A stretch of DNA of 64,000 bases from Margaritispora aquatica. Taxonomy: Eukaryota; Ascomycota; Leotiomycetes; Helotiales; Discinellaceae. The stretch's first letter is position 1. Every line of letters starts with the position of its first letter. This document shows positions 43,443-47,332 of this stretch, one piece after another. The translations under genes and the position numbers were made by a program. The notes below the pieces were generated by a model. That model saw only the letters and a list, made by a program, of their open reading frames with translations. It made no database searches and had not been told where the DNA came from. The stretch lies in the NCBI GenBank assembly GCA_007644065.1, contig VJWN01000025.1, positions 133,927 through 197,926 on the forward strand, written 5' to 3'.

Positions 43443-44536
43443 TTAGGCACAATGCACCACCCCATCAGCATGAGTATGGCACTCCGTAGCCGCACTCTGC
43501 ACCGTGGTAGCTGGTGCAGCAGCAGTCGTACTTGCGGCCACCGCACTCACACTCACACTAGTCGCTACAGCACTGGCACTGGCACTGGCACTGGCACTAG
43601 TACTCGTTGGTGCAGCCGCGACAGAAGCACTGGAAGATGCAACAGGCACACTGCCTGCACATCCCACACCTGGAACAGCAATGTCATATGCATACACCTC
43701 GACTGCGAAATGGCGGAGCGTGGCGCTGTTGCGGACTGCTTCCTCCGGGTGTTCTTTTGCCAGGGCGAGGATTTCCGCTTGTGCTGTTGGGTGCTGTGTT
43801 AGATAGCTTCTCGTTTGCGGGAGGGGGAAAAGATTAGAGAGAGGAAAAGAGAAAAGACGTACTGTCAGCATAATGGTCCACGACGCCCTCAGACATCTTC
43901 TTGGTGTGATAAAGGCGATGCAACAAGTCTGCACCAAACCACTGCGCGTCTTTGCCCGTAGCGACCGTGTACCCGTGTCCGCACATAGCCTCGAGAGGCC
44001 ATCTGGACTCGAAAGACAAAGGGCAGATGACCGTCTGATCAGGAGCTATCTCGCCTCTCCAGTGGCCAGCCCATCCTGGTCTTCATTAGCACCTACACAC
44101 AAGCCGCAAACAGGAAGCACCAAAGAGAAAACTCACCAGCCTGCCAGCACTTATTATCCACATCATCGCACCTAAACAGCACGCCGTCCTTGTCGCCCTC
44201 AATGAGCTTGTCAAACCACCCAACCGGCTCGGCCGTCGTGCTGCTGTTGCCGAAGTACTTGACGTACGTCTCGGAAGCGTTGCCGAAGCGCAGGATGTGC
44301 TCCTTGGCGTGGCGCGCGAGGGTGGTGCTTTCGTTGAGGGCGCGGAGGAGCTGCGAGCGCTCGGTGGCGTTGCAGGACGGGTGGATGGTGTACTCGGACA
44401 CGGCGCCGGCGGACCAGCTCCATGCGGTGTTTGTGTCGCGCTGGGTGAGGGATTGCTCGGGTGCTGTTGGGATGGGGGCTGGGAGAGCGGTGCTCAAGCC
44501 TGGAAGGAGGAGGAGGATGATGGAGAGGAGCTGCAT
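43443..44536 (-). CDS. secreted HRxxH zincophore-like protein (Pra1/Asp f 2/Zps1 family)
   Basis: Three exons, 44536-44137, 44075-43863 and 43783-43443, giving 317 residues. Signal peptide MQLLSIILLLLPGLSTALP. Family blocks follow in order: YVKYFGN with EPVGWFDKL, RCDD, GWAGHWRGE, TVICPLSF, LEAMCGHGYTVA, then the zincin-like HRLYH at 186-190, DHYAD, and HFAVEVYAYDIAVPGVGC. A Ser/Ala/Val low-complexity tail precedes the C-terminal CHTHADGVVHCA. The HRxxH replaces the protease HExxH, so zinc binding rather than proteolysis is expected. Relatives are zinc-repressed and act with a ZIP transporter to scavenge zinc; Asp f 2 and Pra1 also bind host proteins. The divergent neighbour is a ZIP transporter. 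Confidence 0.92.
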
Positions 44537-45486
44537 CTTGAGGGTTGGTTGATGGTTTGGTGGTTTGAGTTGATTATGAGGAAATCTTGAGGACTGAGAA
44601 GAAGCGATGGGTGAGAGTGAAGAGTGAGATGGGGATGGGATATAAGGTCTTTATATGTGCCTCAATATTGCTGAACTCTTTGAATTGTCATGAAAATACA
44701 CCTTCCTGGCCATGGGAGAACTATCCCAACCTCCCATTGTACAACTTAGTCACAATTACAAGTAGATTCATACCAACATGGCGCAAACCACGCGCTCATT
44801 AACAAATATTGATCCATCCCGCTCAAAATGACATACCGAATCGTCCCAAAACGTGCTTCGTCCATGACTGACCAGATTCCCAAAGTCTTGCAAAACTGCA
44901 AAATGGAAAAAAACTTCAGCATTTAGTCAAAAAAGCACATAGCCAAGATGAAGCTAAAGATATCAAGAGTGGGCTGTCCTCTGCCACAACGACAAACTCG
45001 ACCATGAAAACCACGATATAATCATTCGGTAATACTGTAAAGCAGAACAAAGTTGAGATAGAGCAGGCTTTGTGGGAATACCTTGATGGTTACCCGAGAC
45101 TTTGACGTGCTGGGCGCTTCGCTTGGCGTATAAATGCTCCACGCCCCACGAGAATCAATCCCCATTTCTGAACTTGGCGGGATGAAGACTTGTTCGGCGG
45201 GTGATAATCTGGAGCCTGATGTGCTATCAAGGTTGATGAGAGCGGTGTGGTGGCGGCGGATATGCTTGTTGATGTGGTGGTGGAGTTGCTTGCTGATGTA
45301 TTTGGCATGCCGAGAAATGTACGTACATAGCAGCATCAATTGGATACTTAGGTGAGAATACCCAGTGACTTGGTCATTGGTGAGCAGCATAAAAGATCCG
45401 GATCCTCGATTTTGAACATGTGCCGAACCCTTTGAAATAGCCAACAGTGTATACGATTTGCCCTTGTCCAAGACAACATCGCAATT
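44537..45486. promoter_or_regulatory. shared divergent promoter of the zincophore and ZIP genes
   Basis: A 950-bp interval between two head-to-head start codons. It contains ACCTTGATGGT at 45080-45090 (one mismatch to the yeast Zap1 element ACCTTNAAGGT), CAAGGT at 45228-45233, and PacC-type hexamers (GCCARG) at 44942-44947, 45122-45127, 45173-45178 and 44705-44710 on one or other strand. A TATAAA-like box lies near 45129. The orthologous aspf2-zrfC promoter of A. fumigatus is controlled by ZafA and PacC. Confidence 0.65.
45080..45090 (+). promoter_or_regulatory. near-consensus Zap1/ZafA zinc-responsive element
   Basis: ACCTTGATGGT differs from the yeast zinc-responsive element ACCTTNAAGGT at one position. 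Placed about 400 bases before the ZIP gene and 540 bases before the zincophore gene, it could serve both. Confidence 0.55.
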
Positions 45487-47332
45487 ATGAGTATGAGAAA
45501 CATCCTCGCCGCTGCTATTTTGTGGTCCTTGACTGCTGCGCAAACTTTGACATTGAGTGGTTGCCATGTTCATGGAACTGAGGAGTAAGCATGAGCTATC
45601 CCATTCAAAACACATAACCTGACCGTAATAGATACTGCTATCTCCCAAATGGCTCAGAGGTCCCGTTTACTCGCACTGGATCAAGGACAACGACTGTTGC
45701 AGCACAAACCACCAGTCCAGTAACCACAGAGGCGAGTGCAACTTCGGTGGCAATTCCAGCTTCTGTAACAGGTTGCCACCTTGATGGAACGACACAGTAA
45801 GATGAATCCGGAATTCCCTCGCGCTGCAAAGTAGAAATCTGACGCTTCATCATAGGGTCTGTTTGGCGAGTGCAACAGAATATGCTGTTCTGGAGACACC
45901 TACTATAACACCGCTGCCAACGGAGTATTCCGGCTGCCACAACCATGGCACGGACATGTGAGTTGGCTTTACTGTTCCTCGTTTTCATGGCGTCTTGCAG
46001 GCATTCTCGAGCTGACTGCCAAAATAGATTCTGCCTTGCTTCAGATGGAAGCGAAGTGCAGATTGTCCTGGAAGGTACAGAGGCTGCATCAGAGGAGACT
46101 TCGACGACAAGTGGTGGGACAAATTGCCATTTCCACGGAACCATTGAGTAAATTCTATCGTTCTAGTTCTTGTCGATGAGGCTGACAAAAAAAAAAGACA
46201 TTGTACAGGAGGCAGTGCTACAACGACTTGCGAGGCCGTTGATCGTGATTATAAGATGGGGTTAAGAATCGGCTTCATCTTCGTAATTTTGGTATCTAGT
46301 GCATTTGGTAAGCATATAAAGCATATACCACTCACCTCTAACACCCAATAGCCGTTTTTGCACCCATGCTTCTCCAAAGGTTCACGAAAATGAGCCTTAA
46401 TGGAATCGTCTTCACAATATTGAAACAATTCGGGACTGGTGTCATCATCTCAACAGCTTTTGTACATGTAAGAAACTCCCACCTAGCCATTTACATCAAT
46501 TGACAGATAAAGCTTCTCTCTCATGCTCAAATCATGTTCGCCAACGAGTGCCTAACAACACTTGTGTTTGAGGCACCTGCGACGGCGATTGCAATGGCTG
46601 GAGTATTCCTGTGTTTCCTCATAGAATATTTCGGACACCGACTTATTGTCAAGCGAAAAGGTACTGAGAATGAAGCGGTGGATAATGAGCAGCAGTACAG
46701 TTCTCGCAAAGAAAACGAGTCCATTGAGGAAAACAGCTCAAACACGCCAAATACAACGATAGCTGCTCTTGGCCATCACCATGGTGGACAAGTGGGTCCA
46801 GACAACCATTTCAACGTTGCCGTAATGGAATCTGGCATCATCTTTCACTCTATTCGTAATGCAATCCATCCATGTGAGAAAAGCACTTGCTGACCATTGC
46901 CCAGTAATCGGCATCACTCTGAATGTCACTCCAGACTCATACTACATCACGCTCTTCGTAGTGATTCTCTTCCATCAAATGTTCGAAGGAGTGGCACTCG
47001 GCACTCGCATCGCAGCTCTTCAAGATCGAACCCCAACACTGACCAAATTGCTCATGGCCTCGCTATTTGCGATCATCACCCCAGTTGGCATGTCCATCGG
47101 AGCAGGCGTGTTGAAGCAATTCAACAGCAGTGATCCGTCCACCATCGTCGCGTTAGGCACCTTGGATGCGCTCAGTGCGGGTATTCTCCTCTGGGTTGGG
47201 TTGGTGGAAATGTTGGCACACGATTGGATGCATGGCGATATGGCGGGGGCGGGTATGATGAAGATTTTGGTGGGCGTTGGGAGCTTGGTCGTAGGAATGG
47301 CTTTAATGAGTTTCTTGGGGAAGTGGGCGTAA
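45487..47332 (+). CDS. ZIP family zinc transporter with repeated Cys-His ectodomain
   Basis: Eight exons, 45487-45584, 45632-45796, 45856-45957, 46028-46147, 46198-46307, 46352-46467, 46513-46855 and 46905-47332, giving 493 residues. A signal-like start is followed by an ectodomain with four motifs, at residues 26-35, 81-90, 115-124 and 155-164, of form CHx[H/D]GTxxxC. Then come RDYKMGLRIG before TM1, the fungal ZIP helices, a cytosolic His loop (GHHHGGQ) and the TM4-TM5 metal site (ESGIIFHS and HQMFEGVALG). It should import Zn2+ across the plasma membrane. It is divergent from the zincophore gene, as in aspf2/zrfC and PRA1/ZRT1. Intron 4 ends with ten A residues before an AAG acceptor. Confidence 0.93.

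What the first reader, a model, noticed from the sequence alone, without database searches (positions are those of the whole stretch)
45487..46307. Four Cys-His modules in the ZIP ectodomain, each split by a phase-2 intron at the same place
The motif CHx[H/D]GTxxxC occurs at residues 26-35, 81-90, 115-124 and 155-164. Introns 1-4 all fall in phase 2 within the codon two positions before the last Cys. Symmetric exons of this kind are what tandem exon duplication produces, suggesting the zinc-binding ectodomain grew by exon duplication.
Basis: seen in the sequence. Interest (0 to 1): 0.78.

Follow-up and report, generated by a model that had tools for sequence, protein, structure and literature searches.

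The report
Zinc-uptake receptor built of intron-split modules
A fungal zinc transporter of a known family carries four repeated Cys-His modules on its outside, each cut by an intron at exactly the same place, and the same cut seems to occur in distant fungi, which suggests the repeated part grew by copying DNA that already held the intron.

Summary
An eight-exon, 495-residue ZIP gene (45487-47332, +) has CHxxGTxxxC at residues 26-35, 81-90, 115-124 and 155-164. Introns 1-4 each fall 23 nt after the start of the module's first Cys codon, phase 2. It is a ZrfC/Zrt101-type zincophore receptor: its divergent neighbour (43443-44536, -) is the Pra1/Aspf2 zincophore, the only PF13933 locus found in the genome. 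Four putative zinc-binding motifs in the ZrfC N-terminus are in print; my paper searches showed no report of the intron pattern. No homologue DNA was reachable, so introns were tested indirectly. Among 104 homologous proteins, all 10 module heads that lack a tail break at the same codon, and six tails entered from unrelated sequence carry Arg or Ser there, as a phase-2 AG|N acceptor predicts. One donor side does not fit, and several modules are unsplit. Best reading: intron-bearing modules were duplicated before the large Pezizomycotina classes split and were inherited here. Each exon encodes two half-modules, not a domain; copy number also changed in a budding yeast, so introns were not required. 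Zinc binding and cDNA are untested here.

The parts
45487..47332 (+). ZrfC/Zrt101-type ZIP gene, 8 exons, 495 aa; introns 45585-45631, 45797-45855, 45958-46027, 46148-46197 (phase 2), 46308-46351 (phase 1), 46468-46506 (phase 0), 46856-46904 (phase 1)
   Evidence: splicing script; PF02535 E 6.1e-44; homologue alignment
45487..45543 (+). probable signal peptide, residues 1-19 (inferred; predicted helix 3-17 in homologue P0002)
   Evidence: sequence
45562..45638 (+). module 1 (scores B-type, narrowly), CHVHGTEEYC, split by intron 1
45585..45631 (+). intron 1, phase 2, 23 nt into module 1; retention gives GAG TAA
45774..45862 (+). module 2 (A-type), CHLDGTTQVC, split by intron 2
45797..45855 (+). 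intron 2, phase 2, 23 nt into module 2; retention gives CAG TAA
45935..46034 (+). module 3 (B-type), CHNHGTDIFC, split by intron 3
45958..46027 (+). intron 3, phase 2, 23 nt into module 3; retention gives ATG TGA
46125..46204 (+). module 4 (Z-type, membrane-proximal), CHFHGTIEHC, split by intron 4
46148..46197 (+). intron 4, phase 2, 23 nt into module 4; acceptor is a run of A then G; retention gives GAG TAA
46259..47317 (+). ZIP transporter domain, residues 183-491
43443..44536 (-). divergent neighbour: Pra1/Aspf2-type zincophore (PF13933 HRXXH), C-terminal CHTHADGVVHC not split by an intron
44537..45486 (.). shared 950-bp region between the two start codons of the divergent pair

Best explanation
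The gene encodes a plasma-membrane ZIP zinc importer of the ZrfC/Zrt101 kind that works with the divergently encoded Pra1/Aspf2 zincophore. Its ectodomain is a row of small beta modules (types B-A-B-Z) whose Cys and His residues offer zinc sites that hand metal to the membrane channel (inferred from named relatives). The row arose when DNA encoding a module that already held a phase-2 intron at the codon two before the last Cys was duplicated, before the large classes of Pezizomycotina separated. Each copy kept the intron; some lineages later lost single introns or whole modules. Because the cut is equivalent in every module, any loss or gain of an exon joins two half-modules into one intact chimeric module in frame, so module number can change without breaking motif or frame. 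Shown: gene anatomy, intron equivalence in the window, zincophore neighbour, broken-ORF signature in homologues. Inferred: splice junctions, zinc hand-over, age and order of duplications.
For: Offset 23 nt and phase 2 in 4 of 4 modules. Zip domain; model of homologue P0002 matches BbZIP. Pra1 neighbour, the only PF13933 locus found in the genome. The last protein search returned 6 short ORFs of 6 candidates: four end exactly at CHFHAGVE and two diverge right after it. Over all 104 homologues, module heads without a tail break at module residue 7 or 8 in 10 of 10 cases, a looser scan adds no true case, and no ORF ends in a shorter partial head (break point judged by eye). Six tails entered from unrelated sequence all have Arg or Ser at C-2 against 18 of 264 intact non-Z modules. 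In P0103 and P0105 the residues after E, and a later frame-shifted stretch that would read HCVGS, fit a phase-2 intron (my reading). In P0090 both sides fit phase 2 (my reading). No AG|R proto-splice context at the four window sites (exon ends GGA, ACA, CAT, TGA). The like motif CHTHADGVVHC of the neighbour has no intron.
Against: No cDNA and no genomic DNA of any homologue was reachable. The P0100 B2 donor side reads Arg-Val and does not fit a phase-2 GT donor, and its Arg at C-2 is native in its relative P0029, so it says little. P0099 and P0069 have an unsplit Z module, P0101 and P0102 an unsplit B2 module, and P0090 unsplit later modules, so the pattern is not universal. P0093 and P0095 break elsewhere. 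P0010 and other unnamed-source proteins (for example P0018, P0021, P0023) run unbroken through the module sites; whether these are transcripts, spliced predictions or intronless genes I cannot tell. The short-ORF search could only return truncated proteins, so it cannot show how often the intron is missing. Modules and introns of the window show no recent sequence identity.
Confidence: 0.72

Rival explanations
1. Parallel intron gain: the modules were duplicated intronless and introns later entered the same site in each copy because the shared sequence is a preferred target.
For: Module rows that run as continuous ORFs exist (P0013, P0015, P0017, P0024), and presence seems to differ between modules and lineages (P0099, P0101, P0102).
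Against: Four hits on one nucleotide, and signs of the same site in A-, B- and Z-type modules of several classes. Flanks at the site are not conserved and match no AG|R proto-splice site. The similar Pra1 motif has no intron. Introns are not near-identical as fresh introner copies would be.
Confidence: 0.15
2. Spread by gene conversion or unequal crossing-over between modules: one module gained the intron and conversion copied it to its neighbours.
For: Near-identical tandem units in P0035 and a doubled Z module in P0036 show that neighbouring modules do recombine.
Against: Window modules keep distinct A, B and Z identities and low identity (6-12 of 22 residues), so any conversion left no trace.
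Confidence: 0.1
3. Chance or mis-annotation: the junctions were chosen by eye to fit the motif.
For: No transcript data; intron 4 has a poor 3' splice site.
Against: Reading through any of the four introns stops at the next codon; the spliced product aligns with 16 homologues at 38-66% identity (two of them cut short); broken ORFs of other fungi mark the same codon without my choosing it.
Confidence: 0.03
4. Function rival: the two Cys of each module form a disulphide that holds a beta-hairpin, and the modules serve mainly as a docking rod for the zincophore rather than as zinc sites.
For: Predicted small meanders with the two Cys on neighbouring strands; both Cys of modules invariant or nearly so.
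Against: The His after each first Cys is conserved as strictly; a C. albicans Zrt1 peptide with CHFHAGVEHC is reported to bind zinc through His and one Cys thiolate (PMC9780748, PMC8773511, passages).
Confidence: 0.3

Closest known systems
ZrfC of Aspergillus fumigatus / Zrt1 (Zrt101) of Candida albicans, the zincophore-locus ZIP transporters
   Same: ZIP domain, long extracellular N-terminus with four putative zinc-binding motifs (PMC4343018 passages), a CHFHAGVEHC-type module as in Zrt1 (PMC9780748 passage), divergent pairing with aspf2/PRA1 (PMC3386192, PMC9780748, passages).
   Different: Fourth module reads CHFHGTIEHC and second CHLDGTTQVC (His replaced by Asp). The intron pattern is not mentioned in the passages I saw; the words intron and exon do not occur in PMC9785309, PMC7711662 or PMC5751234.
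Pra1/Aspf2 zincophore (neighbour gene)
   Same: PF13933, HAxxH and HRxxH motifs, C-terminal CHTHxxGxxHC tail, divergent from the transporter.
   Different: Nothing tested sets it apart.
Animal extracellular domains built of symmetric exons (for example EGF or LDL-receptor class A repeats; recalled, no call)
   Same: Repeated Cys-rich modules, symmetric exons of one phase, copy number variable.
   Different: Phase 2 instead of the usual phase 1, and the intron lies inside the module rather than between modules.

Membership tests
ZrfC/Zrt101 zincophore-receptor ZIP transporters | ZIP domain | tested here: met
   PF02535, residues 183-491, E 6.1e-44; homologue model matches BbZIP 7z6n, E 1.7e-4
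ZrfC/Zrt101 zincophore-receptor ZIP transporters | long N-terminus with several Cys-His motifs, last one CHFHAGVEHC-like before the membrane | tested here: met
ZrfC/Zrt101 zincophore-receptor ZIP transporters | divergent pair with a Pra1/Aspf2 gene | tested here: met
   PF13933 on each of three ORF pieces of the neighbour, start codons 950 bp apart
ZrfC/Zrt101 zincophore-receptor ZIP transporters | zinc-regulated, alkaline-pH expression; binding of the zincophore; zinc uptake | not testable with these tools
   needs experiment; CAAGGT count in the window is not above chance
Domain grown by duplication of intron-bearing units (tandem exon duplication kind) | repeated modules with introns at one equivalent site and phase | tested here: met
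   offset 23 nt, phase 2, 4 of 4
Domain grown by duplication of intron-bearing units (tandem exon duplication kind) | symmetric internal exons | tested here: met
   exons 2-4 are 165, 102, 120 nt, 2-2
Domain grown by duplication of intron-bearing units (tandem exon duplication kind) | same intron site in homologues | tested here: inconclusive
   indirect only, from broken ORFs: 10 of 10 heads, 6 of 6 tails; one donor side misfits, some modules unsplit; no DNA of a homologue read
Domain grown by duplication of intron-bearing units (tandem exon duplication kind) | residual DNA similarity between copied exons or introns | tested here: inconclusive
   module codons 20-37 of 66 nt alike; of 6 intron pairs, pair 3-4 is reached by 0 of 300 shuffles and pair 1-2 by 7 of 300, the other four by 47-154; the shared stretch is CTGAC-like
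Domain grown by duplication of intron-bearing units (tandem exon duplication kind) | junctions confirmed by cDNA | not testable with these tools
   no transcript data in the tools

The most novel reading that the evidence does not exclude
The array is a live exon cassette: because every intron cuts every module at the same nucleotide, skipping or losing any of exons 2-4 leaves an in-frame transporter with one module fewer and a fresh chimeric module, while retaining any of introns 1-4 stops translation at once and would release a secreted stump. The fungus could thus tune the number of zinc modules, by splicing under zinc stress or by exon gain and loss over time, and this layout has been kept since before the classes of Pezizomycotina split: a rare fungal case of an extracellular domain shaped through its introns.
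Probability: 0.12. Interest if true: 0.7.

Novelty: new member of a known kind. Interest (0 to 1): 0.45.

Why it matters
The protein family is studied because it feeds zinc to fungi under zinc starvation, and its N-terminus is described, in the passages I saw, only as carrying four motifs. The intron pattern gives that N-terminus an evolutionary mechanism and a marker: module identity and intron presence can be traced across fungi to date each duplication and loss. It is also a clean test case in fungi for whether introns helped a domain to grow or were merely copied along with it.

Tried and rejected
Direct DNA test in homologues: a CHFHAGVE pattern and two protein-based scans of viral contigs found no relative. 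In prokaryote genome contigs the profile scan found none; the pattern gave 66 stretches, none of which matched five family proteins by tblastn, so I take them as chance matches. Genome paralogues: PF02535 marks eight ZIP loci in the genome, but outside the window no match reached the module part of the query, residues 1-164, so they cannot serve as intron comparisons. Own-genome patterns for the motif were uninformative: TGYCAYNNNNAYGGNACN gave 51 matches against 25 for the reversed control, the other 47 not examined, and the shorter pattern gave thousands. Zinc-response motif: CAAGGT (recalled core) occurs twice in the shared intergenic region, but the window count of 39 is not above shuffles (16 of 100 reach it); dropped. 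Intron homology: pair 3-4 stands out through a branch-like CTGAC stretch, so I do not use it. Solved structures by sequence: none. Paper searches for ZIP transporter with ectodomain, cysteine, intron (no paper), zrfC with intron (six papers, listing only), ZIP transporter with exon duplication (no paper), tandem exon duplication with fungi (12 of 25 listed) and exon shuffling with intron phase and fungi (10 of 12 listed) showed no report of this pattern. One primary ZrfC paper is not held and the other was not tried, so the gene structure may be in them.

Full report
What is there. The window gene splices into eight exons encoding 495 residues, 45487-47332 on the plus strand. Each intron begins 23 nt after the first base of the module's first Cys codon. 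Exons 2-4 are symmetric and multiples of three. If four introns fell at random in the ectodomain, this agreement would have a probability of about 2.7e-8, or about 9e-7 if one intron per module is granted.

What the gene is. Pfam finds only the ZIP domain, residues 183-491; the 185-residue ectodomain has no Pfam match. The eight nearest homologues over the ectodomain are named fungi such as Cadophora, Rhynchosporium and Oculimacula (53-60% identity; I recall them as Helotiales). On the other strand, start codons 950 bp apart, lies a gene with PF13933 on each of three ORF pieces and a C-terminal CHTHADGVVHC. PF13933 marks only that gene in the genome. This is the arrangement of the zincophore locus, aspf2-zrfC in Aspergillus fumigatus and PRA1-ZRT1 in Candida albicans (PMC3386192 and PMC9780748, passages). 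ZrfC is described as having a long extracellular N-terminus with four putative zinc-binding motifs, absent from the acidic transporters and important for its role (PMC4343018 and PMC9785309, passages). A C. albicans Zrt1 peptide with CHFHAGVEHC is reported to bind zinc (PMC8773511, PMC9780748, passages). The protein kind and its motifs are therefore known.

Module types. Profiles built from second, third and last modules of 39 four-module homologues sort modules into A, B and Z types. The window reads B-A-B-Z, its first module only narrowly B (35.5 against 30.7 bits). First modules of the 39 score best as B in 33 and as A in 6. In P0024 and P0035, modules in B position mostly score slightly better as A, so the split is not clean there. 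With a fixed motif, the 98 homologues scanned hold from none to nine recognisable modules: mostly three in Fusarium, four in the eight close relatives and 7 of 8 named Aspergillus, five in Orbilia, six in Cercospora and Septoria, nine in P0024. P0035 of Sungouiella intermedia has three near-identical A units and two near-identical B units in tandem, and P0036 of Penicillium egyptiacum has a doubled Z module where P0046, P0051 and P0053 have one. Module number thus changes, sometimes recently, and in P0035 in a budding yeast (lineage recalled), where introns need not be involved.

Introns in homologues. No fungal DNA other than the window's own genome could be read. I therefore looked at where homologous ORFs and gene models break. 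A 64-residue query around the B2 and Z modules, limited by the tool to proteins of about 35-112 residues, returned six ORFs of six candidates. Four end exactly at CHFHAGVE and two run on into unrelated residues right after it. The limit selects truncated ORFs but does not dictate where they end. Over all 104 proteins of the three searches (P0002-P0105), every module head without a tail, 10 of 10, breaks at module residue 7 or 8: P0082, P0090, P0097, P0100 (two modules), P0101, P0102, P0103, P0104 and P0105. I judged the break points by eye, and P0101/P0102 and P0103/P0105 are related pairs. That scan could not see ORFs stopping before residue 8, so I repeated it more loosely: no ORF ends in a shorter partial head, and the extra rows are not broken modules (a longer-spaced CNN motif in P0038 and P0039, Cys next to the membrane in P0047, P0048 and P0066, and a tail Cys in P0104). 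The first scan also listed tails that I set aside as regex false matches (P0038, P0039, P0042, P0054, P0075) and P0020, which merely starts inside a head.

Reading. One site in four modules, signs of the same site in A, B and Z modules of distant classes, no proto-splice context, and no intron in the look-alike Pra1 motif favour duplication of DNA that already held the intron over repeated insertion. Later single losses explain the unsplit cases. The copying is old: window modules agree at 6-12 of 22 residues and introns share little.

Structure and mechanism. A model of homologue P0002 (36 aligned sequences, mean pLDDT 73.5, first three modules about 68-88, last module about 45-47) shows three short strands in each of the first three modules and two in the last, with the intron codon at or next to the start of the second strand. 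The cut is thus inside the predicted folding unit. Skipping or losing an exon would fuse two half-modules into a whole one in frame. Retaining any of introns 1-4 gives a stop as the next codon: GAG TAA, CAG TAA, ATG TGA, GAG TAA. Whether the fungus uses either is unknown. The transport step, from zincophore to ectodomain to channel, is inferred from the named relatives.

Verdict. The interest lies in a testable intron signature, not reported in the papers I could search, in a known and medically studied family, not in a new kind of system.

Noticed in passing
43443-44536 (-): Pra1/Aspf2-type zincophore gene, divergent from the transporter, only PF13933 locus found in the genome.
   Followed up: yes
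45080-45085 and 45228-45233: Two CAAGGT sites, on opposite strands, in the shared intergenic region; the window-wide count is not above chance.
   Followed up: partly
45585, 45797, 45958, 46148: Retention of any of introns 1-4 puts a stop as the very next codon, so unspliced message would give short secreted stumps.
   Followed up: partly
protein P0024: Unnamed homologue with nine modules in an A-B pair pattern plus Z, the longest row seen.
   Followed up: partly
protein P0036: Penicillium egyptiacum homologue with a doubled Z module (29-residue spacing), single in P0046, P0051 and P0053.
   Followed up: partly
46856-46904: Intron 7 seems conserved: homologues P0010 and P0099 run on after FHSI with Arg, as a C|GT donor predicts.
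   Followed up: partly
G000 (window's own genome): The CHxxGT-coding DNA pattern has 51 matches against 25 for the reversed control; apart from the four in this gene they were not examined.
   Followed up: no
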